Virus record (IMG/VR): IMGVR_UViG_3300035698_009773
Span: 1-33,086 of that record
Reading direction: 5' to 3' (one strand)
Length of the DNA stretch: 33,086 nt
Origin: a virus
Of this stretch, positions 14,723 to 29,584 are shown piece by piece. The position numbers and the translations under genes are program-made. Numbering within the stretch: position 1 is the first letter of the stretch; every line of letters begins with the position of its first letter. The notes under the pieces are model-generated. The model saw only the letters and a program-made list of their open reading frames with translations. It was not told the origin of the DNA and did no database searches.

Positions 14723-15880
14723 ATGTCTAGCAAAGAAAATTTATCGGAAGTATTACGAAACTCTTTGAATGATAAGTTTAAAGATTTTAAAGTAGCGTAC
14801 TTCCTAAATGAAGAAGAAACACCAACAGACCTAAATGAATGGATTTCTACAGGTTCGAGCATGTTGGATTTGGCAATAGCCAATAAACCTAATGGTGGAT
14901 TCCCGGTGGGAAGAATCATAGAAATCACAGGAATGGAAGCCTCTGGAAAATCATTACTAGCGGCGCATGCTTTAGCCAATACACAAAAGAAGGGTGGAGT
15001 AGCAGTATTTATTGATACTGAAAATGCAGTAAGTAGAGAATTTTTTGAAGCAATTGGTGTTGATTTAGAATCATTAGTTTATGTACAATTAGAATCTGTA
15101 GAAGATATATATGAAGCTATCACAGATTTGATAACTAAAATTCATGAATCTAATAAAAATAAACTTGTTACTATTGTTGTAGATAGTATGGCAGCAGCCA
15201 CAACTAAAATAGAACAAGAACAAAACTTCGAGAAAGAAGGTTGGGCAACAAGTAAAGCAATTGTAAATTCTAAAGGTATGCGAAAAATAACGCAGACAAT
15301 TGGAAGAGAACGTGTTTGTTTAATTTTCACAAATCAGTTACGTATGAAGCTTGGTTGTGTAAATCCAGAATCAACTTTTGTTGTATGTAGAAGAAAACTT
15401 ACAGAACAAGAAATAAATATTAATGATTTATTGCAATCAATAAACATTAAGTATCAAGATTTACCGATAGGTATTGAGATTGATATAGAAGAACATAAAA
15501 TGCAATTTATGACAGCAGATGGAAAATGGAATAATGTTATAAGTGTTATTCGCAAACCAGATGATATATTGTATAATATAACAGTAGGGTCTGACGAACT
15601 ACAAACAACAGGAAAACATAGAGTGTTAACTCAAGAAAATGAGTTTGTATATGTTGAAGATATGATAAATACTTCATATCATGTTAATCATAAAAATACA
15701 TGGAAGAAATGCATTGTAGAAAAAACAGATTATATCATACCTGTTATTGACTTTGAATTAGATGGCGATCATACATATATAACTAATAATATTGTATCGC
15801 ATAATACAAGTTTTGGCGATCCATATTGTGTTGATCCATATGAAACAAAAGTAAAACTCCGTTATAAAATAGAAAAATAA
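14723..15880 (+). CDS. uvsX: RecA/UvsX recombinase, N-terminal gene: N-extein + intein 1 + short IntN of intein 2
   Basis: The protein has 385 aa, with AGGAGA seven bases before the ATG. Residues 1-211 are the recombinase N-extein: Walker A G70-x4-G-K-S77, a Walker B-like V-V-D-S strand, and the end L-I-F-T-N-Q-L-R-M-K-L-G. Residues 212-361 are a complete mini-intein (C1...S-H-N), followed by T362 and the bridge T-S-F-G-D-P-Y (362-368). A second intein then begins at C369 and stops after 17 residues at TAA 15878-15880. The C-terminal recombinase domain is encoded 1.1 kb further on. The sequence around the joins aligns with bacterial RecA better than with T4 UvsX. It should catalyse strand exchange only after splicing. 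Confidence 0.85.
   Translation: MSSKENLSEVLRNSLNDKFKDFKVAYFLNEEETPTDLNEWISTGSSMLDLAIANKPNGGFPVGRIIEITGMEASGKSLLAAHALANTQKKGGVAVFIDTENAVSREFFEAIGVDLESLVYVQLESVEDIYEAITDLITKIHESNKNKLVTIVVDSMAAATTKIEQEQNFEKEGWATSKAIVNSKGMRKITQTIGRERVCLIFTNQLRMKLGCVNPESTFVVCRRKLTEQEININDLLQSINIKYQDLPIGIEIDIEEHKMQFMTADGKWNNVISVIRKPDDILYNITVGSDELQTTGKHRVLTQENEFVYVEDMINTSYHVNHKNTWKKCIVEKTDYIIPVIDFELDGDHTYITNNIVSHNTSFGDPYCVDPYETKVKLRYKIEK
15356..15805 (+). other. intein 1 of the recombinase (150-aa mini-intein)
   Basis: It runs from C212 to N361 of the upstream gene product. The first residue is Cys, a TxxH-like block B (T-T-G-K-H-R) is present, the C-terminal blocks read D-F-E-L-D-G-D-H-T-Y then I-V-S-H-N, and the +1 residue is Thr. 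There is no endonuclease domain. All splicing residues are present, so cis-splicing is expected. Confidence 0.85.
15827..15880 (+). other. intein 2, N-terminal half (IntN, 17 residues)
   Basis: It starts at C369 directly after the bridge T-S-F-G-D-P-Y. The residues C-V-D-P-Y-E-T-K-V-K-L-R-Y-K-I-E-K have the block A pattern (Cys1, T at +6, alternating V). The gene then stops. The length matches the atypically split inteins with an IntN of about 16-25 residues (AceL-TerL, VidaL type). Its partner is encoded at 16999-17367. Confidence 0.8.
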
Positions 15881-15907
15881 TTAATAAATGTTCATAAAAA
15901 TATTTAT

Positions 15908-15934
15908 TTGACATACTTATATATGACTTATAAA
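15908..15934 (+). promoter_or_regulatory. candidate promoter for the endonuclease gene
   Basis: TTGACA at 15908-15913 and TATAAA at 15929-15934 are separated by 15 bases, slightly short for a sigma70-type promoter. TATAAA is also close to a T4 late box. It lies in the 73-base gap between the recombinase N-gene stop and the endonuclease start, and would let the inserted gene be expressed on its own. Confidence 0.4.
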
Positions 15935-15953
15935 CGACAAGTGGAGTATTTTT

Positions 15954-17012
15954 ATGGACATTTTATTAGAATATTTTGATATAAAATTTTATTGGGATTG
16001 TGATAAACCAATAATAAAATTAACTTTAAAAAATGAAAAAAAGATTGTAGACTACCCAATATATAAACCTGGAACTAAAATACCATATTCTGGGTCACAA
16101 GAAGTATATTACATGCATTATCTAGGTAACAATACGGGTAAACTAGTTTATGAACAACGAAGAAAATTATTTCCTAAAACAAAAAGAATAGAATGGTACA
16201 TCAATACATTTGATATTACAGTAGAAGAAAAACAACGATTAACAGAACATTTATTTGTTATTAGTAAAAATATATCTGGCGGGTTACTAAAGCATTACAG
16301 TTCCGAAAATGGGAAAAAAACGAAGGAAAAATTAAAGTTACGAAATAAAAAATGGGCTCCAATTATTGGACAACAACATAAAGAAAGATGGGAAAATAAT
16401 CCTGTATGGGTTAAAAAAGAAATGGAGCGTAGAAAGAATACAGGAATGTATGAAAAAATAAGTAAATGCAATAAAGAAAGAATGGAAGACCCTGTATTTA
16501 GGGCGTATTTTAAAGAGCGGTGTAATGACCCAACAAGAAAGAAAAAGATTAGTGAAGCTAGCAAACGAATGTGGCATGATGCAAAACATAATAATTTAAA
16601 AAAATATTATAAAATGATAAATAATTCTAAAAATAAAAAATATGTTTGTTGTGGTATTAAAATGAATAGTATTGAATACCACATGGCTAATATATTATTG
16701 GATTTAAATTTAGAGTTTAAATATGAAAAATTATTTATGTTAGATACACATAGTTATTTACCTGATTTTTATATACCTAAATATAATTTAATTGTTGAGT
16801 GTTATGGGGATTTTTGGCATGCAAACCCAGAATTATTTGAAGCAACACATACAACACATAAAAATAGGTTAGCCAAAGATATATGGGAATATGATTTAAC
16901 AAAAAAAGAAGTTTTTGAAACTCATGGATATAAGTTTATGTTTTTTTGGGAAGCTTCTATATTAAAACAAAAAAGTATTATAATTAAAAAAATAAAAAAT
17001 GAAATATATTGA
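15954..17012 (+). CDS. EDxHD (Vsr-like) homing endonuclease inside the fractured recombinase gene
   Basis: The protein has 352 aa, with GGAG seven bases before the ATG. The middle (~130-215) has lysine-rich helical repeats of the NUMOD/S-E-A-S-K-R-M-W type that bind DNA. The C-terminal ~110 residues form a Vsr-like nuclease: E241 in N-S-I-E-Y-H, D271 in L-P-D-F-Y-I-P, E282 and G-D286-F-W-H289. This EDxHD family is the one found between halves of fractured intein genes. It should cut uninterrupted recombinase alleles and so spread the insert. Its end overlaps the start of the recombinase C-gene by 14 bases, which couples their translation. Confidence 0.75.
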   Translation: MDILLEYFDIKFYWDCDKPIIKLTLKNEKKIVDYPIYKPGTKIPYSGSQEVYYMHYLGNNTGKLVYEQRRKLFPKTKRIEWYINTFDITVEEKQRLTEHLFVISKNISGGLLKHYSSENGKKTKEKLKLRNKKWAPIIGQQHKERWENNPVWVKKEMERRKNTGMYEKISKCNKERMEDPVFRAYFKERCNDPTRKKKISEASKRMWHDAKHNNLKKYYKMINNSKNKKYVCCGIKMNSIEYHMANILLDLNLEFKYEKLFMLDTHSYLPDFYIPKYNLIVECYGDFWHANPELFEATHTTHKNRLAKDIWEYDLTKKEVFETHGYKFMFFWEASILKQKSIIIKKIKNEIY

Positions 17013-17367
17013 ACAAGAACTATCGCTAGCAGAGATAGCAGAAAAATTTTTAGGGATAAATGATTTCCAAACACCAGAAGTATATGATGTTGAAAATTAT
17101 GATTTACAAGTTGAAACCATTAATGATAAAACTGGCAAACATATTTTTAAACAGATAAAAGCTTTTATAGTTAAAGAAGCAGTTGACCATTATTATACAG
17201 ATGGAATATTAAAAGGTACGGGAAATCACATCATTGTTGAAAACGGAAAAGAAGTACATCTAAAAGAACATCCAGATTTTAAACGTGTTGATGAAACAAT
17301 GCATGTTGTAGATATTGAAGTTGAAGATGCACATACATATTTGGCAAATGGACGATTGAATCACAAT
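16999..17367 (+). other. intein 2, C-terminal half (IntC, 123 residues)
   Basis: It holds blocks B, F and G of a class 1 intein, with penultimate His122, Asn123 and +1 Thr124. Together with the 17-residue IntN it makes a 140-residue intein with no endonuclease domain of its own, since that function is in the separate gene between the halves. Confidence 0.8.
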
Positions 17368-17703
17368 ACAACATCGGGCGGTCATGCAATAAAATTCCAC
17401 GCATCAGTTCGTTTACGCTTAAAATCAAAGGGACAGTTAAAAGCTAAAGTAAGCTCAAATACTGTTGAACAAACAATTGGTATTAAAACTGAAGCACATG
17501 TTGTAAAAAATAGGTGTGGACCTCCTTTGAAAAAAGTAGAATTTAATATCTATTTTGATTCTGGAATTGATGATTACGCAAATTGGTTGGATAAACTAAA
17601 AGTGCATAAACTAGTGAAGCAAGCAGGTGCTTGGTACACACTTCCAGAAGAGTTGTATGGTGAAGAAATAAAATTTCAGTCAAAAGATTTCGTAGGAATT
17701 TAG
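16999..17703 (+). CDS. uvsX: RecA/UvsX recombinase, C-terminal gene: IntC of intein 2 + C-extein
   Basis: The protein has 234 aa. Residues 1-123 are the large C-terminal intein half: a block B-like G-T-G-N-H-I-I, then V-V-D-I-E-V-E-D-A-H-T-Y-L-A-N-G and the final N-H-N. The C-extein starts at T124 with T-T-S-G-G-H-A-I-K-F-H-A-S-V-R-L, the RecA core after F-G-N-P-E, and includes V-V-K-N-R and Q-A-G-A-W-Y. No Shine-Dalgarno precedes the ATG, which lies inside the end of the endonuclease gene. The frame meets TAG at 17701, yet coding continues in frame for 43 more codons to TAA 17833. The mature spliced protein would be 329 aa, or 373 with the extension. Confidence 0.85.
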   Translation: MKYIEQELSLAEIAEKFLGINDFQTPEVYDVENYDLQVETINDKTGKHIFKQIKAFIVKEAVDHYYTDGILKGTGNHIIVENGKEVHLKEHPDFKRVDETMHVVDIEVEDAHTYLANGRLNHNTTSGGHAIKFHASVRLRLKSKGQLKAKVSSNTVEQTIGIKTEAHVVKNRCGPPLKKVEFNIYFDSGIDDYANWLDKLKVHKLVKQAGAWYTLPEELYGEEIKFQSKDFVGI

Positions 17704-17835
17704 GAAGAAAAACCAGAATTGAAAGAAAAGATTTATAATCTAATCTGTGACGAAATGATTATGAAATATAAGTCAACATCAATTAACCCTGATGATATCA
17801 TATACGACGACAAAGAACCAATTCCAGAAAATTAA
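17704..17835 (+). other. in-frame coding extension of the recombinase beyond TAG
   Basis: After TAG at 17701-17703 the same frame encodes 43 residues (E-E-K-P-E-L-K-E-K-I-Y onward) of normal codon use, ending in an acidic tail and TAA at 17833. A perfect terminator begins 11 bases later, as expected if this is the true gene end. RecA-like proteins normally carry such a C-terminal tail. Confidence 0.65.
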
Positions 17836-17845
17836 TTATTATTTT

Positions 17846-17876
17846 AAGGGGATGAATCCATCCCCTTTTATTTTTT
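17846..17876 (+). terminator. rho-independent terminator after the recombinase
   Basis: AAGGGGATG (17846-17854) pairs perfectly with CATCCCCTT (17859-17867) around the loop AATC. It is followed by TTATTTTTT. It is the most GC-rich hairpin of the region and closes the recombinase transcript 11 bases after TAA 17833. Confidence 0.9.
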
Positions 17877-17887
17877 AAAACATTTAC

Positions 17888-18478
17888 ATGAACGAAAAAT
17901 ATTTTGACTTATTCTCATCTTTAGAAAAAAAAGCACCGTTTACACAAAATTCGCGAGTTTTACTTATAGATGGGTTAAATTCTTTTATACGTGCATATGC
18001 AGCATCACCTACGACAAGTGAACATGGGTATCATATTGGAGGAGTAACCGGATTTTTATTAAGTGTTGGTTATGCTATCCGAAATATAAATCCAACACAG
18101 GTAATAATTGTGTTTGATGGAAAAGGCGGAAGCAAGTATAGGAAGTCAATTTATCCTGATTACAAGGCAGGACGAAAGTCTCGAACTAATATTATTAATA
18201 ATTCATTTTATAATTCAAAGAACGAAGAAGAAAAAGCAATGCAAATGCAAATGCATTTGTTAGTTAAATATTTAAAACTACTTCCTATTAAAATTATGTC
18301 AATTGATGGTGTAGAAGCCGATGATGTAATGGCATATTTAAACTTTTGGTTCAAAGAAAAATACGAGTCTGAAATATCTATAATGTCTACAGACAAAGAT
18401 TTTTATCAATTAATAGATGATAAAACTACTGTATGGAGCCCAACAAAAAAGAAAGTTTATACAACTAATGAAATATAA
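17888..18478 (+). CDS. 5'-3' exonuclease / flap endonuclease (T4 Rnh-like), N-terminal part before in-frame TAA
   Basis: The part has 196 aa and carries the acidic clusters of the FEN/5'-nuclease family: L-I-D-G-L-N-S near 25, V-F-D-G-K...Y-R-K-S-I-Y-P-D-Y-K-A-G-R near 78-100, I-D-G-V-E-A-D-D near 140 and S-T-D-K-D-F near 166. The frame meets TAA at 18476-18478 and then continues in the same frame with the helix-hairpin-helix part. The enzyme would remove RNA primers from Okazaki fragments, next to helicase and SSB. As written the product lacks its DNA-binding C-terminus. It follows directly on the terminator of the recombinase unit. Confidence 0.75.
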   Translation: MNEKYFDLFSSLEKKAPFTQNSRVLLIDGLNSFIRAYAASPTTSEHGYHIGGVTGFLLSVGYAIRNINPTQVIIVFDGKGGSKYRKSIYPDYKAGRKSRTNIINNSFYNSKNEEEKAMQMQMHLLVKYLKLLPIKIMSIDGVEADDVMAYLNFWFKEKYESEISIMSTDKDFYQLIDDKTTVWSPTKKKVYTTNEI

Positions 18479-18595
18479 AAAGAATTTGAAGGACTACATC
18501 CAAATAATTTTATTTATTATAAAGCATTAATAGGTGATAGTTCTGATAACATACCTGGAGTCAAAGGTCTTGGATTAAAGACTCTTAAAAAGAGA

Positions 18596-18958
18596 ATGCC
18601 AATATTATTTGAACATGAAAAAATAGACCTTAACACTATTTTTGAGTATGCAAAAAATGAAGATACAAAAGCCGAAGAAACAAAAAAAGCAACAAAATAT
18701 AAAATATATTCTCAAATATTAGAAAACAAAGATGTCATAGCTACTAATTATAAATTGATGCAATTACATGAATCTATAATAAATAATACTAAAAAATCAA
18801 GTATTATGTATCAATTGGAACAACCAACTAACAGATTAACAAAACATACATTTATTGCTGAATTAGTAGAAGATGGGCTCAACACATTTATCAAAGCTCC
18901 TGATGTATGGTTACGAGAAACATTTAATAAAATAGATAATTTCACAATAATAAATTAA
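18596..18958 (+). CDS. flap endonuclease, C-terminal part after the in-frame TAA
   Basis: The same frame as the upstream part is open from 18479, but the first ATG is at 18596. The stretch before that ATG encodes A-L-I-G-D-S-S-D-N-I-P-G-V-K-G, the conserved last acidic cluster and helix-hairpin-helix of 5'-nucleases, so it must be translated with the N-terminal part. The ORF from 18596 (120 aa) is therefore not an independent gene. Read through, the whole protein would be about 356 aa, somewhat longer than T4 Rnh (305). Confidence 0.65.
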   Translation: MPILFEHEKIDLNTIFEYAKNEDTKAEETKKATKYKIYSQILENKDVIATNYKLMQLHESIINNTKKSSIMYQLEQPTNRLTKHTFIAELVEDGLNTFIKAPDVWLRETFNKIDNFTIIN

Positions 18959-18963
18959 TAATA

Positions 18964-20325
18964 ATGGTCGATAAATTAAGTGAATTTGGATATAGTTTTC
19001 AAATAAAGTTGGTAACATCTTTATTAACAGATATATCATTTTTAAAGCAAATTATAGACATATTACAACCAGATTATTTTGAATCAACTTCTAATAAATA
19101 TATAGTTAACATCATTAAAGATTATTTTATAGAGTATAAAAGTATACCCACATTAGAAGTTTTTAAAGTGAAACTATCAGAGACAAATGATGATTTATTA
19201 AAGACAACAACAGTTGAAACGTTAAAAGAAGTATACAAAGCTACAGATGCAAAAGACTTGCAATTTATAAAAGAAGAAGCACTGTTATTTTGTAAAAACC
19301 AAAGTTTGAAACAAGCTATTTTGGGGTCTGTTGATTTGCTAGAACTTAACAAATTTGACGAGATTAAATCGTTAATAGATGATGCAATGAGAGCAGGAAC
19401 TGAGCAGAACATTGGTCATGATTATAAAATAGAAGTACGTAAACGATATGAAGAAGGAACGAGAAATTGCATGCCAACAAGATGGGACATTATCAATGAA
19501 ATCATGGATGGTGGATTAGCAGCAGGAGAATTGGGGGTATTAATTTCTGGTCCGGGAGGAGGAAAATCGTGGATGTTACAATCAATTGGTGCACATGCTT
19601 TAATGGAAGGAAAAACTGTTTTTCATTATACACTTGAATTAGATGAAGACTATACAGGACGTAGGTATGATTCAATATTAACAGGAATAGCATTTCGTGA
19701 TTTAAAATATCATGTAGATATGATTGAAGAACGAGTAAAAAATATTAAGGGTAATTTATCAATTAAGTTTTTCCCTGAACAAAGTATATCAATTAATGGA
19801 ATTAGAGCACATATTGAAAAAGCAACATTATTAGATAAAAAACCTGATTTAATTATACTAGATTATGCGGATTGTCTTAGACCAATACAAATGGGAAAAC
19901 GAGATAGGTCCGACCAATTAAGTGGTGACATTTATAGTATGATAAAAGGAATGTTAGGTGAATTACAAATACCATGTTGGACAGCTAGTCAATCGAATAG
20001 AGGGTCTGCCGAGAATAGTTACATACAAGGACATGACGTATCTGATTCATATATAAAAATAATGAAAGCAGACTTTATTGTTAGTTTACAACGAAAAGTA
20101 GAAAATAAAATAGCAGGGACAGGGATATTACATGTTATAAAAAATAGGTTTGGACCTGATGGAATTACACTGCCAAGTAAAATTAATTTTGACACAGGAA
20201 AAGTAGAAATTTTTGAACCTAGCACACATGAAGGTAAAGAAACACAGACAAAGATAGAAAATGGAGATGTACAAGTACGTAAATATCTCAGCAACAGATT
20301 AAATCAATTTAATGGTAAAAATTAA
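18964..20325 (+). CDS. replicative DNA helicase, gp41/DnaB-like
   Basis: The protein has 453 aa. The N-terminal ~150 residues are helical (partner/primase-interaction region). The RecA-like ATPase domain has Walker A G196-P-G-G-G-K201-S202, Walker B L-I-I-L-D-Y-A-D-C-L-R and the T-A-S-Q-S-N-R-G motif that senses nucleotide and DNA. This is the hexameric 5'-3' helicase of the T4-type replisome. It starts five bases after the flap nuclease and its stop TAA overlaps the next ATG by one base (TAATG). It is intact and of typical length (T4 gp41 is 475). No primase (gp61) gene is visible in the window. Confidence 0.85.
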   Translation: MVDKLSEFGYSFQIKLVTSLLTDISFLKQIIDILQPDYFESTSNKYIVNIIKDYFIEYKSIPTLEVFKVKLSETNDDLLKTTTVETLKEVYKATDAKDLQFIKEEALLFCKNQSLKQAILGSVDLLELNKFDEIKSLIDDAMRAGTEQNIGHDYKIEVRKRYEEGTRNCMPTRWDIINEIMDGGLAAGELGVLISGPGGGKSWMLQSIGAHALMEGKTVFHYTLELDEDYTGRRYDSILTGIAFRDLKYHVDMIEERVKNIKGNLSIKFFPEQSISINGIRAHIEKATLLDKKPDLIILDYADCLRPIQMGKRDRSDQLSGDIYSMIKGMLGELQIPCWTASQSNRGSAENSYIQGHDVSDSYIKIMKADFIVSLQRKVENKIAGTGILHVIKNRFGPDGITLPSKINFDTGKVEIFEPSTHEGKETQTKIENGDVQVRKYLSNRLNQFNGKN

Positions 20326-23288
20326 TGAAGAAAAAATTAGAATTTAATAATGATTTAAGTAAAGAAATATACGAATTAACATATAAATTCGGTGAAGAAG
20401 ATGTAAACGGGACAATTCATAGGATAGCAACAGAATTATCAAACAATGAAAAAGATAAAGAAGTTTGGTATGACAAATTCACAGAACTGTTATCAGACTT
20501 TAAATTTATACCAGGTGGAAGAATAATATCTAATACAGGTACCAAGCTAAAAGGTACTAGTTTATTAAACTGTTTTGTAGACGGATTTACAGGAAAAGAC
20601 CAAGATTCTATTGATGGAATAATGAATGCATTGAAACGACAAGCCAAGATACTTAAATCGGAAGGTGGGTATGGGATAAATGTTGATGTTATACGACCGC
20701 GTGGCGCATATGTTTATGGTATAGCAAATGAAACACCAGGTGTTGTTACAATGATGGAAATGTGGGATACACAATCAAAAGTTATTACTGAGGGAAGTGG
20801 AAGAATAAGCACACGGAAAAATAGTAAAAAGAAGATAAGAAAAGGTGCTATGTTGGCATGCATGAGTATATGGCATCCGGACATTGAAGAATTTATCACT
20901 GCGAAACAACAATCAGGTAAATTAACTAAATTTAATTTATCAGTAGGCATAACAGATGCTTTCATGCAAGCTGTTAAAAACCACGAACTATGGCAGTTAA
21001 AATTTCCAGAATTTGATTCTGATATAATGATTGGAAATAAAACGATTAAAGAAATTTATAAAGACGAATGGGATGGAAATATTGTAAAATGGGAAAGTAA
21101 AAATTTACCTGTTAAAGTATATAAAACATATGATGATGCAAATGAATTATGGAACTTAATAACTAAATCAACATATGACAGGAATGAACCTGGAATATTA
21201 TTTATAGATAAAATCAATGAATATAATAATTTGTATTATAATGAGTTCATAAATGCCACGAATCCATGTGTTATTGGTGAAACAAAAATTCCAATTATTA
21301 AAAATAATGTTTTTGAAGAAGTTTGTATTAAAGATGTTATAGGCAAAAAAATTACAACGTGGAATGGATTTGAAACAACAGAAGTAACACCATATAAAAC
21401 AGGACAAGATAACGAAGTAATTAAAATTAATTTTAATAATGGAAGTAATATAACTTGCACAAATTATCATATTTTTATAGATAAATCAGGAAATAGAATA
21501 GAAGCTAAAGATATATTAACAGAAGGGTTTGAACTACAGAGTTTTATAGATTATAAAACAAACAAGTCTGTTCCTAATATAAAAGTAACATCATATGAAA
21601 TATTAAAAGAAAGACACGATGTGTATTGTTTTACAGATGATAAAAATCATACAGGAGTGTTTAATGGAATAATGACAGGACAATGTGGCGAAATTCCACT
21701 ACCAATTGGCGGAGCTTGTTTATTATCAAGTATAAATTTAACACAATTTATCAATGAAAAAGTTGATGATTGGGACTATAAAAAATTAAAAAAATATATC
21801 CCAACTATGGTTAGATTTATGGATAATATTAATGATATAACTCCACTACCATTGCCTGACCAAAAGGATAATCTACTTAATAAACGTAGGTTGGGTCTAG
21901 GAGTAATGGGGTATGGGTCTGCATTATTAATGATGAAATATAGATATGGCTCTACGAAAGCATTACAGATAACAAATGATTTATTTAAATTTATAGCAAA
22001 TGAAGGCTATAAAGCATCTTCCAATATCGCATCAATAAAAGGAAGTTTTAAACTATTTGATACAGATAAATTTTTAAACAGTAAACAAATACAAAAACTA
22101 GATTTATCTACAAGAAATTTAATTAAAAAACAAGGTTGTAGAAACAGTCATATTGGAATGATAGCTCCAACGGGAAATTCATCAATCTTTGCAAATTGTG
22201 TGAGTGGTGGATTAGAACCTGTATTTTTATTTGAGTATACAAGAACAATGTCGGTACCAGAAACCCCCAAAGGATTGATATTACCTATTATTGATTGGAG
22301 CGATAAAACGTTTGAAGTTACAGACCAAAAATGGGAATGGATACAAGAAGGTGATGAAGCATTATTAATGATTGAATTTAATGATATAATATACAAAATA
22401 GATAATCATCGAGGCCTTTTAAAAGAAAGTAAAGTAATAGATTATGGCACTAGATATTTACAAGAAAAAAATGAATGGGATAGTAAAGCAGATTGGGCAG
22501 CAAATATTGAAACATTGTCAATCGATGAACATATAGATACATTATCTACAATAGGCTATTGGATCTGTTCAAGTATGTCGAAAACCATAAATTTACCTAA
22601 TGATTACCCATATGAAGATTTTAAAAATGTTTATACTAAAGCATATGAAACCGGAAATATTAAAGGTGTAACTACATATAGAGCAGGCACGATGGGAACG
22701 GTATTATCATCAGGTAATAAACAATCATTACATGAAAGAAAAGATGACCGAATTTACAGACATTCCGCACCAATACGCCCAGATGTTGTTCCATGTGATG
22801 TGCACCAATTAACAGTACAAGGGATAAAATGGACTGTTTTTATAGGAATGCTAAAAGATGAAACAGATGATTATAGCCCATATGAAATCTTTGCCTTTAA
22901 AAAGAAAAGTATAACATTACCAAATAGAGTTACAAATGGCTATTTAATAAAAGTTAAACGAAAAGTTTATAATTTTGAGTCAAACGATGGTTTAGTTTTA
23001 GAAAATCTTCTAGAATTCTTTGACAGAGATGAGCAAGAAGCATTAACAAGAAGTATATCATTAGCACTACGACATGGAGCACAAGTTAAATTTGTTGTGG
23101 AACAATTAAATAAATCAGAAGGTGATATACTTGCATTTAGTAAGGCAATGGCACGCACACTTAAGAAATATATTAGAGATAATGACGTGCCCACACATAC
23201 TAAATGTCCACATTGTGAAAAACAAGACGCATTGATTTATATGGAAGGATGTATAAAATGTAAATTTTGTGGTTATAGTGAATGTTAA
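20325..23288 (+). CDS. nrdJ: class II (adenosylcobalamin-dependent) ribonucleotide reductase with intein
   Basis: The protein has 987 aa, or 848 after removal of a 139-aa intein. C83 (L-L-N-C-F-V) is one active-site cysteine. The thiyl-radical cysteine is C454 in N-P-[intein]-C-G-E, and its partner C465 (G-A-C-L-L-S-S-I-N-L) lies 11 residues on, the spacing of class II enzymes rather than the 23 of class I NrdA. A-P-T-G-N-S-S-I and G-L-E-P-V-F line the site. The C-terminus has a C-P-H-C...C-I-K-C-K-F-C zinc ribbon typical of NrdJ. No NrdB is needed. It would supply dNTPs, given cobalamin from the host. Confidence 0.85.
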   Translation: MKKKLEFNNDLSKEIYELTYKFGEEDVNGTIHRIATELSNNEKDKEVWYDKFTELLSDFKFIPGGRIISNTGTKLKGTSLLNCFVDGFTGKDQDSIDGIMNALKRQAKILKSEGGYGINVDVIRPRGAYVYGIANETPGVVTMMEMWDTQSKVITEGSGRISTRKNSKKKIRKGAMLACMSIWHPDIEEFITAKQQSGKLTKFNLSVGITDAFMQAVKNHELWQLKFPEFDSDIMIGNKTIKEIYKDEWDGNIVKWESKNLPVKVYKTYDDANELWNLITKSTYDRNEPGILFIDKINEYNNLYYNEFINATNPCVIGETKIPIIKNNVFEEVCIKDVIGKKITTWNGFETTEVTPYKTGQDNEVIKINFNNGSNITCTNYHIFIDKSGNRIEAKDILTEGFELQSFIDYKTNKSVPNIKVTSYEILKERHDVYCFTDDKNHTGVFNGIMTGQCGEIPLPIGGACLLSSINLTQFINEKVDDWDYKKLKKYIPTMVRFMDNINDITPLPLPDQKDNLLNKRRLGLGVMGYGSALLMMKYRYGSTKALQITNDLFKFIANEGYKASSNIASIKGSFKLFDTDKFLNSKQIQKLDLSTRNLIKKQGCRNSHIGMIAPTGNSSIFANCVSGGLEPVFLFEYTRTMSVPETPKGLILPIIDWSDKTFEVTDQKWEWIQEGDEALLMIEFNDIIYKIDNHRGLLKESKVIDYGTRYLQEKNEWDSKADWAANIETLSIDEHIDTLSTIGYWICSSMSKTINLPNDYPYEDFKNVYTKAYETGNIKGVTTYRAGTMGTVLSSGNKQSLHERKDDRIYRHSAPIRPDVVPCDVHQLTVQGIKWTVFIGMLKDETDDYSPYEIFAFKKKSITLPNRVTNGYLIKVKRKVYNFESNDGLVLENLLEFFDRDEQEALTRSISLALRHGAQVKFVVEQLNKSEGDILAFSKAMARTLKKYIRDNDVPTHTKCPHCEKQDALIYMEGCIKCKFCGYSEC
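21267..21683 (+). other. intein of the ribonucleotide reductase (139-aa mini-intein)
   Basis: It covers residues 315-453, between N-P and the catalytic cysteine C-G-E. It begins C-V-I-G-E-T-K-I-P, has the C-terminal blocks V-Y-C-F-T-D-D-K-N-H-T-G-V-F-N-G and ends M-T-G-Q before +1 Cys. The terminal residue is Gln instead of Asn, and the usual penultimate His is Gly. Gln-ending inteins are known to splice. No endonuclease domain is present. Confidence 0.85.
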
Positions 23289-26884: not shown

Positions 26885-29584
26885 ATTTATCAAAACGCAT
26901 ATTACGACAGGACAAAAAATGTAATTCATATTTTCGATGATGAACGTGGACATATATCGTCTAATTATCAACCATATGGTTATGTAAAATCAAATAAGGG
27001 TAATCTAACTACTTTGGATGGAATTAAGGTAGCTAAGACTAATTTTATAAAGAAAGAAGACATTGATGCTGGAAACATATTTGAGAGTGATTTAAGTCCT
27101 GTTTTACGTACATTGTTAGACATGTATGGTGATAGTGATGAGCCATCAAAAAACCATACTCATTTCTTTTTTGATATTGAAGTAGCTAAGGAAGAACATT
27201 ACAGCACAGCAGAAGATGCGAATAATATGATAACATCAATATGTTATTATACTCCAAACCTTAATAAATATGTGGTATTAGTAGTAGATGAAGACAACTC
27301 AATACCAACGATGGATAATGAAAAAATAAAGGTAAATAGGTTTGACAATGAAAAAGAACTATTAAAAGAATTCTTAAAACATTATATTGAAATAAAACCT
27401 ACAATATTAACAGGTTGGAATATAGACGGATTTGATATACCGTATTTATATAATAGAATTACAAAAGTTCTTAGTAGAAGACAAGCAAATACTTTAAGCC
27501 CATTGGGCATAGTAAATTGGAATGAACGAGATTTAATATATAATATAGCAGGTGTCTCATGTCTTGACTATTTATACATGTACAAGAAATTTGATCCAAA
27601 CGAGAAATCTTCGTATGCATTAGATGCTATTATGAAAGCAGAATTGGGATATGGCAAAATCGAATATGATGGGGATTTGGACCAATTAAAAAAGAATGAC
27701 CCTATTAAATTCATTAAGTATAATATGGTGGATGTGAAAGGTGTAGTAGATATTGATAATAAGAAAGACTATATTACACTTGTTAAAAATATATGTCACA
27801 AAGGACATGTGGTATATGAAGATATAAAACATACATCTACGTATTTAGATGGCGCAAGTTTGGTCTATACTAAGAAAATAGGTATTGTAGCACCCAATAG
27901 AAAAAAGCCAATATCTTTTAAAGTAAATACAACACAGACAAAAGGAAAGACTGAAATTATAGTAGCAGACGAAATTCCTAAAGAAATACCATTAGTTGGA
28001 ACATTACGTATTGTAGAATCTAAATCAAAATCATTTAAGGTAAATTATATAGATTATAAGAACAATGTATTTAAGTTAGAAGAACCATTAAAGAAGATCA
28101 TACAGCCAGATTTTATAATTCGTTTAAATTTAATTGGAGCATATGTAAAGTCACCTAATGTAGGATTACATGAATGGATATTTGATTTGGATTTACAATC
28201 GTTATATCCAAGTATTATAATGACATTGAATATAAGCCCCGAAACAAAACGTGGAAGAGTAATTAATTGGAAAACAAATGAATTTATAACTAATTCAAAT
28301 TATGAATTTATTGTTAACAATATAAAGGGTAAAAATGAAAAGATACTAGCAAAGGATTTTAGAGCATGGCTAAAAGAAAACAATTATTCTATTGCAGCCA
28401 ATGGTGTATTTTATACGTTAGACGAACAAGGATTTTTACCATCAATTTTAGAAAAGTGGTTTGAAGAACGTGCTGAGTATAAAAAATTAATGAAAAAATA
28501 TGGTAAGGCAGGAGATAAAGAATTACAACAATATTATCACATCAGACAATGGGTACAGAAGATTTTATTAAATTCATTCTATGGTGTACTTGGATTACCA
28601 AGTTTTAGGTACTATGATATTGATAATGCATCTTCGGTTACCGAGAGTGGATGGCAAATAATTCTCTTCTCGGAACAAGCAGCTAATAGTTATTATAACA
28701 AAAATTTAGGAACTTCAAATGTAGACTATGTGGACTATATTGATACAGATAGTTTATTTTTATCTGCGTTACCACTTATTAAACACAGGTTCCCTACTGC
28801 GGATACGACGAATGATAAACTAATGACAAAACATATACTCAATATTGCAGGTGAAGTCCAAGGATATGTTAATAAAATGTATGACAAATATACTGATATT
28901 TATCACAATGTTCAAAATCATAAACTGTTAATTAAACAAGAATCTATTGCAAAATCAGCTATTTTTATAGTTAAAAAACGCTATGCACAATGGATTATTA
29001 ATAAAGAAGGAATTGAATGTGATGAATTGGATGTAAAGGGTATTGATGTAGTACGAAGTGATTTTCCAAAAGCATTCAGGACATTTTTAGGAACTGTATT
29101 AAAATCTATTCTAGCAAAACAAACAAAAATAGATATTGATAATCAAATTATAGATTTTAAAACTTCTATAAAAGAAAGAGATATAAAACAAATTATGTTT
29201 CCGACGGGAGTTAAAAATGTTTTAAAACATGATTATCTCGATAGAGGTTTATTTGAAATAATGAAAGGAACACCAATACATGTTAAATCGTCATTGTACT
29301 ATAATGATATATTAAAACATAAAGGGTTTACTAGTGGAGCCAAGATATCAAATGGAGATAAAATACTGTGGTCGTACTTAGCTGAAAACCCTTTGAATTT
29401 AAAAACATTGGCATTTAAAGGAACAGACGACCCCGAATTTATTGTAGACTATTTAAAGAAATATATTGACTATGACGAAATATTTGAGAAGTCTATAATA
29501 AGTAAAATCAAATCTTTCTATGTAGCATTAGATTGGGGACAAATGAATCTAAACGAATCAATAAATAAATTTTTTAATTTTTAA
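26885..29584 (+). CDS. replicative DNA polymerase, family B (T4 gp43-like); non-ATG start
   Basis: The first ATG in frame is 27014, but coding clearly extends upstream: the 43 codons before it (Y-Q-N-A-Y-Y-D-R-T-K-N-V-I-H-I and onward) match the N-terminus of phage family B polymerases. AGGAG at 26872-26876 sits eight bases before ATT at 26885, the likely start. That gives 899 aa, against 898 for T4 gp43. Exonuclease motifs F-F-D-I-E-V and N-I-D-G-F-D-I-P-Y, motif A D-L-Q-S-L-Y-P-S-I, motif B K-I-L-L-N-S-F-Y-G and motif C Y-I-D-T-D-S are intact. It should be the replisome polymerase with proofreading. Only 21 bases separate it from folE. Confidence 0.8.
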   Translation: MYQNAYYDRTKNVIHIFDDERGHISSNYQPYGYVKSNKGNLTTLDGIKVAKTNFIKKEDIDAGNIFESDLSPVLRTLLDMYGDSDEPSKNHTHFFFDIEVAKEEHYSTAEDANNMITSICYYTPNLNKYVVLVVDEDNSIPTMDNEKIKVNRFDNEKELLKEFLKHYIEIKPTILTGWNIDGFDIPYLYNRITKVLSRRQANTLSPLGIVNWNERDLIYNIAGVSCLDYLYMYKKFDPNEKSSYALDAIMKAELGYGKIEYDGDLDQLKKNDPIKFIKYNMVDVKGVVDIDNKKDYITLVKNICHKGHVVYEDIKHTSTYLDGASLVYTKKIGIVAPNRKKPISFKVNTTQTKGKTEIIVADEIPKEIPLVGTLRIVESKSKSFKVNYIDYKNNVFKLEEPLKKIIQPDFIIRLNLIGAYVKSPNVGLHEWIFDLDLQSLYPSIIMTLNISPETKRGRVINWKTNEFITNSNYEFIVNNIKGKNEKILAKDFRAWLKENNYSIAANGVFYTLDEQGFLPSILEKWFEERAEYKKLMKKYGKAGDKELQQYYHIRQWVQKILLNSFYGVLGLPSFRYYDIDNASSVTESGWQIILFSEQAANSYYNKNLGTSNVDYVDYIDTDSLFLSALPLIKHRFPTADTTNDKLMTKHILNIAGEVQGYVNKMYDKYTDIYHNVQNHKLLIKQESIAKSAIFIVKKRYAQWIINKEGIECDELDVKGIDVVRSDFPKAFRTFLGTVLKSILAKQTKIDIDNQIIDFKTSIKERDIKQIMFPTGVKNVLKHDYLDRGLFEIMKGTPIHVKSSLYYNDILKHKGFTSGAKISNGDKILWSYLAENPLNLKTLAFKGTDDPEFIVDYLKKYIDYDEIFEKSIISKIKSFYVALDWGQMNLNESINKFFNF

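What the first reader, a model, noticed from the sequence alone, without database searches (positions are those of the whole stretch)
14723..17835. Fractured RecA/UvsX gene with an atypically split intein whose N-half is only 17 residues
The recombinase is encoded in two genes 1.1 kb apart. The first ends 17 residues into an intein (from C369, stop 15878). The second starts with 123 residues of IntC ending in N-H-N and then resumes the RecA core at T-T-S-G-G. Extein joins read R-M-K-L-G, T-S-F-G-D-P-Y and T-T-S-G-G-H-A-I-K-F, aligning without gap to bacterial RecA. An endonuclease gene fills the gap. Split inteins with such short N-halves (AceL-TerL, VidaL) are rare and valued in protein chemistry; most were found on metagenomic fragments, so a full genomic setting is informative. 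Whether this exact intein is already catalogued I cannot check.
Basis: partly seen in the sequence, partly recalled or inferred. Interest (0 to 1): 0.95.

Follow-up and report, generated by a model that had tools for sequence, protein, structure and literature searches.

The report
Phage RecA rebuilt by split intein
A virus of bacteria encodes its DNA-recombination protein as two separate genes that are probably stitched back together by a self-removing protein element whose front piece is only 17 residues long; dozens of related viruses carry the same element, some in split and some in unsplit form.

Summary
ORF1 (14723-15880) holds RecA/UvsX residues 1-211, a contiguous 150-residue intein, a 7-residue extein (TSFGDPY) and a 17-residue IntN (CVDPYETKVKLRYKIEK, then TAA). 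ORF3 (16999-17703) starts with a 123-residue IntC ending LNHN, then TTSGG and the rest of RecA. A Vsr-like endonuclease gene fills the gap.

It belongs to a large allele family that I found described nowhere in the papers held. 47 other viral loci (40 further distinct sequences) carry this IntC at the same RecA site. Eight distinct ones are contiguous, and the state changes at least 5 times on the tree. One near-identical pair differs exactly at the split point. Endonuclease relics show that the split outlives the endonuclease. Split IntCs are under purifying selection (dN/dS 0.05-0.09). A contiguous relative is predicted as a HINT fold (pLDDT 95), nearest PolB16 and VidaL, the two known natural inteins split at this position.

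Corrections: the window is a metagenomic fragment. ORF3 ends at an in-frame TAG (17701) that none of 45 relatives covering that region has, so the given end (17835) lies past a stop. 17 residues is not the shortest known IntN. Splicing is inferred, not shown.

The parts
14723..15355 (+). N-extein: RecA/UvsX residues 1-211, Walker A intact (GMEASGKS), ends RMKLG
   Evidence: Pfam RecA E 9e-37, PHROG 97 UvsX-like E 4.9e-42; alignment to Mel-JY01 RecA
15356..15805 (+). Intein 1, contiguous, 150 aa (CVNPEST...NNIVSHN), followed by Thr
   Evidence: L058 carries the same intein split after 16 aa, L014 carries it contiguous
15806..15826 (+). Micro-extein TSFGDPY (7 aa) between the two inteins
15827..15877 (+). 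IntN of split intein 2, CVDPYETKVKLRYKIEK (17 aa); stop TAA 15878-15880
   Evidence: 15-24 aa in most split relatives, longer by reading frame in L060 and L086
15954..17012 (+). Putative Vsr-like/DUF559 (EDxHD-type) homing endonuclease, 352 aa, between the two recA halves
   Evidence: Pfam DUF559 over its cut-off; TIGR00632 vsr E 1e-4 but below cut-off; Vsr structures E 0.0034 and 0.001; conserved NxIE, PDF, ECYGDxWH
16999..17367 (+). IntC, 123 aa, block-B-like TGNH, ends LNHN
   Evidence: TIGR01443 intein C-terminal over its cut-off; 47 relatives; AlphaFold pLDDT 92
17368..17703 (+). C-extein: TTSGGHAIKF... RecA C part, 111 aa, ending in in-frame TAG 17701-17703
   Evidence: Pfam RecA E 6.5e-13; relatives read a sense codon there
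17704..17835 (+). In-frame continuation of the recA C-terminal region after the TAG, to TAA 17833-17835
   Evidence: aligns to the C-terminal region of relatives; terminator-like hairpin follows at 17846-17867

Best explanation
This is a RecA/UvsX recombinase gene of a tailed phage, broken in two at a class-1 intein. ORF1 makes RecA-N, a cis intein, the 7-residue TSFGDPY and a 17-residue IntN. ORF3 makes a 123-residue IntC and RecA-C. IntN supplies the first beta strands and Cys1 of the HINT fold; IntC supplies the rest, with block-B Thr/His, the penultimate His, the terminal Asn and Thr+1. The halves bind, the acyl group after Tyr(-1) moves to Cys1 and then to Thr+1, Asn123 cyclises, and RecA is joined at DPY-TTSGG. 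Intein 1 splices in cis a few residues upstream. Both inteins sit in the region equivalent to DNA-binding loop L2, so an active recombinase should need both reactions. The split state most likely arose when a homing endonuclease gene entered the intein after its second beta strand; loss of the endonuclease can leave the intein split, and contiguous forms also exist. Shown here: sequence, homology, motifs, predicted fold, state changes, selection. Inferred: association, trans-splicing, order of reactions, homing activity, direction of the changes.
For: Both halves are RecA. The IntC end hits NCBIfam intein_Cterm over its cut-off. Forty-seven viral loci carry the same IntC at the same RecA site, most of them split with IntN of the form CVDPxTTKxKIRYK. 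Eight distinct ones are contiguous, IntN running straight into IntC (L058, L062, L076/L077, L078, L079, L083, L090, L096). L094 (split, with endonuclease) and L096 (contiguous) are 98.7% identical over 4.75 kb, beginning at the split point. The tree needs 8 state changes, at least 5 forced by well-supported branches. Endonuclease relics remain in still-split L060, L092 and L089. IntC of split forms evolves at dN/dS 0.049, 0.051 and 0.091. A contiguous relative folds as HINT (pLDDT 95); its top Foldseek matches are PolB16 and VidaL, and it aligns to VidaL with Z 15.3, rmsd 2.0 over 116 residues. No Rfam intron in the region.
Against: No splicing has been shown for any member. ORF3 carries an in-frame TAG that no relative covering that region has. 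The exonuclease gene also has an in-frame stop, and the polymerase has ATT at its expected start, so this genome copy may be damaged or the contig may hold base errors. IntC has no obvious ribosome-binding site. IntN alone is too short for an independent statistical match.
Confidence: 0.88

Rival explanations
1. The gap is removed or bypassed at RNA or ribosome level (group I/II intron with a homing endonuclease, or translational bypass), so a contiguous intein is made and splices in cis.
For: Homing endonucleases often sit in introns, and contiguous versions of this intein exist.
Against: No Rfam family at gathering score in the whole window, and only chance hits in the gene. IntC has its own ATG, overlapping the endonuclease end as separate genes do. 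Gap length and content vary widely between relatives: short relics, Vsr-like, HNH, or an unrelated ORF.
Confidence: 0.04
2. The window copy is a decaying gene: the halves no longer give an active recombinase in this genome, and the TAG is part of that decay. This can be true alongside the main explanation, which concerns how the element works.
For: In-frame TAG in recA, in-frame TAA in the exonuclease gene (18476-18478), and ATT where the polymerase of Mel-JY01 starts.
Against: All splicing residues and RecA motifs upstream of the TAG are intact, and the part lost is only the last ~44 residues. Relatives with the same split show strong purifying selection. Base errors in a metagenomic contig would look the same.
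Confidence: 0.25
3. The halves associate without splicing, and a non-covalent RecA works or the long IntC-RecA form has its own role.
For: None direct; ORF3's IntC is predicted to fold on its own.
Against: NHN-T is invariant across members and Cys1 is kept in every IntN seen, which is expected only if splicing is selected. A HINT domain in loop L2 would probably block filament function.
Confidence: 0.04

Closest known systems
VidaL split intein (PDB 6vgv/6vgw; IntN 16 aa, S1 split)
   Same: Natural split after the second beta strand, Cys-dependent, short IntN, HINT fold (Z 15.3, rmsd 2.0 over 116 residues).
   Different: No significant sequence match to the window's intein or to the family profile. 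VidaL's sequence is nearer the Walker-A-site UvsX inteins of L009/L011 (E 7.7e-4 and 3.6e-6). VidaL has proven activity; this family has none tested.
PolB16 OarG split intein (PDB 8cpo; IntN 15 aa)
   Same: Natural S1 split; best Foldseek match (E 4.3e-5).
   Different: Ser1/Ser+1, in a DNA polymerase gene, IntC 168 aa (PMC10189870). Here Cys1/Thr+1, in RecA, IntC 123 aa.
Fractured genes with split inteins and an endonuclease in the gap (Dassa et al. 2009, doi 10.1093/nar/gkp095; not held here, known to me from memory)
   Same: Host gene in two pieces, split intein at the break, Vsr-related endonuclease gene between them.
   Different: As I recall, those are mostly split at the canonical endonuclease site (long IntN). 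Here the break is near the N-terminus, and contiguous and split alleles coexist.
AceL-TerL and GOS-TerL atypical split inteins
   Same: Short IntN (25 and 37 aa), phage-type gene.
   Different: Split after the first helix (S2), terminase gene (PMC13014065, PMC11766414).
Mycobacterium tuberculosis RecA intein (PDB 2imz, 3ifj)
   Same: Intein in RecA, same fold (Z about 13).
   Different: Contiguous; different insertion site as I recall it.

Membership tests
Class 1 intein (HINT domain) | Cys/Ser at position 1, penultimate His-Asn end, Cys/Ser/Thr at +1 | tested here: met
   C369, H122-N123, T124; NHN-T invariant across 28 aligned members
Class 1 intein (HINT domain) | Block B Thr/Ser-x-x-His | tested here: met
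   T74-G-N-H77; His invariant, Thr or Ser in members
Class 1 intein (HINT domain) | HINT fold | tested here: met
   Contiguous relative L058 pLDDT 95, top matches all inteins; window IntC pLDDT 92, likewise. Prediction only.
Class 1 intein (HINT domain) | Protein splicing activity | not testable with these tools
   needs expression
Naturally S1-split (atypical) intein | Two separate genes; split after the second beta strand; short IntN | tested here: met
   Separate ORFs with their own stop and start; split falls after strand 8-13 of the L058 model; IntN 17 aa
Naturally S1-split (atypical) intein | Trans-splicing | not testable with these tools
   no experiment
VidaL sequence family | Sequence homology to 6vgv detectable | tested here: inconclusive
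   No phmmer hit at E<=10 and no profile hit at E<=5; fold alike
Fractured gene with homing endonuclease | Endonuclease gene between the split halves, repeatedly across genomes | tested here: met
   L009-L014 and most split loci carry a relative in the same gap
Vsr-like (EDxHD) homing endonuclease | Vsr-type catalytic residues | tested here: met
   E241, D271, E282, D286, W288, H289 invariant in 8 members and aligned in part to Vsr. Pfam Vsr and TIGR00632 scores stay below their cut-offs
Vsr-like (EDxHD) homing endonuclease | DNA cleavage at the intein insertion site | not testable with these tools
   needs assay
RecA/UvsX recombinase | RecA core with Walker A and L2 region after splicing | tested here: met
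   but the last ~44 residues are cut off by a TAG in this contig

The most novel reading that the evidence does not exclude
Phage RecA/UvsX is a hotspot where three different inteins each occur in contiguous and in S1-split form: Walker A site, L2 upstream site, L2 downstream site. In some relatives (L009, L012, L075) RecA is in three genes and would need two trans-splicing reactions, with IntN fragments of only 13 and 15 residues. If functional, 13 residues would be shorter than the 15 reported as the shortest characterised, and splitting would be a repeatedly evolved and perhaps reversible state rather than a rare accident.
Probability: 0.45. Interest if true: 0.8.

Novelty: new variant of a known kind. 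Interest (0 to 1): 0.62.

Why it matters
Ultra-short split inteins are prized for protein labelling, and only a handful are characterised. This family offers about 40 natural variants of one intein, most of them S1-split, with contiguous relatives for comparison. It also gives a natural record of how intein splitting begins and persists: endonuclease present, decaying or gone, plus a near-identical split/contiguous pair. The recombinase is interesting in itself because two inteins flank a 7-residue extein in its DNA-binding loop.

Tried and rejected
Group I/II intron or other RNA element in the gap: Rfam found nothing.

Stop-codon reassignment in this virus: TAA ends 22 of 31 listed ORFs and TAG 5; only recA and the exonuclease gene continue in frame without a nearby start. 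No tRNA in the window. Recoding was not pursued.

Named hosts or isolates: no IntC relative in 50,697 phage records nor in bacterial/archaeal genome contigs. Acinetobacter phage ME3 has a related endonuclease upstream of recA, but no intein was seen in the recA ORF.

The six hits (L003-L008) have no intein at this site; L008 has one near Walker A.

VidaL's host gene could not be established from the papers held.
Full report
What is there. The window is a linear IMG/VR contig of 33,086 bases, part of a tailed phage with a T4-like set of replication genes: gp32-like protein, RecA/UvsX, exonuclease, DnaB-type helicase, B12-type ribonucleotide reductase, family-B polymerase. The recA gene is in two pieces. 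ORF1, 14723-15880, reads RecA residues 1-211, then a contiguous intein of 150 residues (C212-N361), then TSFGDPY, then CVDPYETKVKLRYKIEK and TAA. ORF3, 16999-17703, reads 123 residues ending LNHN and then TTSGGHAIKF and the rest of RecA. Both halves score as RecA and as UvsX-like. The end of IntC scores above the curated cut-off of NCBIfam's intein C-terminal model. Between them lies an endonuclease gene, 15954-17012, that overlaps the IntC start by 14 nt.

A family, not a one-off. The closest intein-free homologue is the RecA of Microcystis phage Mel-JY01 (56% over the N part, 52% over the C part). Searching viral contigs with the endonuclease gave 43 loci; the six best (L009-L014) all sit in the same place between the same two halves of recA. 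Searching with an alignment of IntC gave 47 loci, with 41 distinct IntC sequences including the window. All lie directly before a RecA C part of the form T-T/V-x-G-G or close to it. Most are split, with IntN mostly of 15-24 residues and the pattern CVDPxTTKxKIRYK; L060 and L086 have longer ones by their reading frames. Eight distinct ones are contiguous, the IntN running straight into IntC. None was found among 50,697 phage records or in bacterial and archaeal genome contigs.

How splitting comes and goes. On a tree of 37 IntC sequences, split and contiguous states are scattered: 8 changes, at least 5 forced by well-supported branches. L094 (split, Vsr-like endonuclease) and L096 (contiguous) are 98.7% identical over 4,753 bases, and the match starts at the split point. 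The gap gene differs: Vsr-like in most, HNH in L085/L087/L088, fused in frame to IntC in L093, an unrelated ORF in L064. Relics are left in L060 and L092 and, read directly, in L089, whose gap keeps the last codons of the HNH gene of L087. L088 (with HNH gene) and L089 (without) have identical IntC proteins with 7 synonymous differences. So the split can outlive the endonuclease. Split IntC pairs evolve at dN/dS 0.049, 0.051 and 0.091, which argues that split forms work.

Mirror image in a relative. In L058 intein 1 is split (IntN CVNPETTDVIFRTQIN, 16 aa, with another endonuclease in the gap) and intein 2 is contiguous, the reverse of the window. A third intein, in the Walker A motif, is contiguous in L011 and split in L009, L012 and L075, with IntN of only 13 residues. 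In those three, RecA is in three genes.

Structure. The contiguous L058 intein is predicted with pLDDT 95; strands 8-13 and 16-21 flank the split position. Foldseek's best solved matches are PolB16 and VidaL, the two known natural inteins split at this position (PMC13014065, PMC10189870); VIA-align gives VidaL Z 15.3, rmsd 2.0 over 116 residues. High Z with many other inteins shows that this is the shared HINT fold, not a special kinship. Window IntC alone is predicted with pLDDT 92 and matches inteins; its first nine residues, partly strand in the contiguous model, are not strand here, as expected if IntN completes the sheet (inference).

Endonuclease. Pfam DUF559 over its cut-off; Vsr structures match weakly (E 0.001-0.0034). 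N-x-I-E, PDF and ECYGDxWHxNP are conserved in eight members. Homing is inferred.

Caveats. ORF3 meets a TAG at 17701; the frame goes on for 43 codons to 17835, and a terminator-like hairpin follows that. The 45 relatives covering that region have C-exteins of 136-193 residues and read a sense codon there, against 111 residues here; of the other two, L067 runs off its contig and L086 stops elsewhere. The exonuclease gene has an in-frame TAA, and the polymerase has ATT at the position where Mel-JY01 starts. Either this genome is damaged or the contig has base errors. This limits claims about this copy, not about the family.

Mechanism. Class 1 trans-splicing is the best-supported reading; the residues for it are present and conserved. 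Because both inteins lie in the region equivalent to loop L2, the spliced state should be needed for activity (inference from RecA biology). Splicing stimulated by single-stranded DNA is reported for an archaeal RadA intein (PMC10663303), which makes regulated splicing in phage RecA worth testing, but nothing here shows it. The expected spliced protein is 329 residues, 36.6 kDa, as the contig stands, and about 42 kDa if the frame went on to 17835.

Novelty. Short-N S1-split inteins and fractured phage genes with endonucleases are known kinds. New here, as far as the tools show, are the allele family at this RecA site, its coexisting split and contiguous states, the cis-plus-trans pair around a 7-residue extein, and the 13-residue IntN elsewhere in the gene. 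I could not check intein databases, and the key paper on fractured genes was not held.

Noticed in passing
L009:3938-3979, L012:2907-2948, L075 (Walker A site): A second split intein in the recA P-loop with an IntN of only 13 residues (CVTEDTxIxVIIE-stop), shorter than the 15 aa reported as the shortest characterised; L011 has the same intein unsplit. RecA is in three genes in these contigs.
   Followed up: partly
L058:1721-4092: Mirror of the window: intein 1 split (IntN 16 aa, with its own endonuclease), intein 2 contiguous.
   Followed up: yes
L094:808-5559 vs L096:2441-7193: Near-identical pair (98.7%), one split with endonuclease, one contiguous, differing at the split point.
   Followed up: yes
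window 18476-18478: In-frame TAA inside the 5'-3' exonuclease gene (17888-18958); relatives read a sense codon there.
   Followed up: partly
window 26885-26887: The family-B DNA polymerase frame has ATT, with a good Shine-Dalgarno before it, at the position where the Mel-JY01 polymerase starts.
   Followed up: partly
window 20325-23288: B12-type ribonucleotide reductase with a contiguous intein (from about residue 315); its C-terminal end looks unusual (...GIMTGQ-C rather than HN).
   Followed up: no
L093:3987-5888: Endonuclease and IntC-RecA-C are one continuous reading frame.
   Followed up: no
L099 (Acinetobacter phage ME3): A related endonuclease lies just upstream of a recA whose reading frame begins near the P-loop; the N-terminal part of RecA was not seen in the stretch read.
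   Followed up: no
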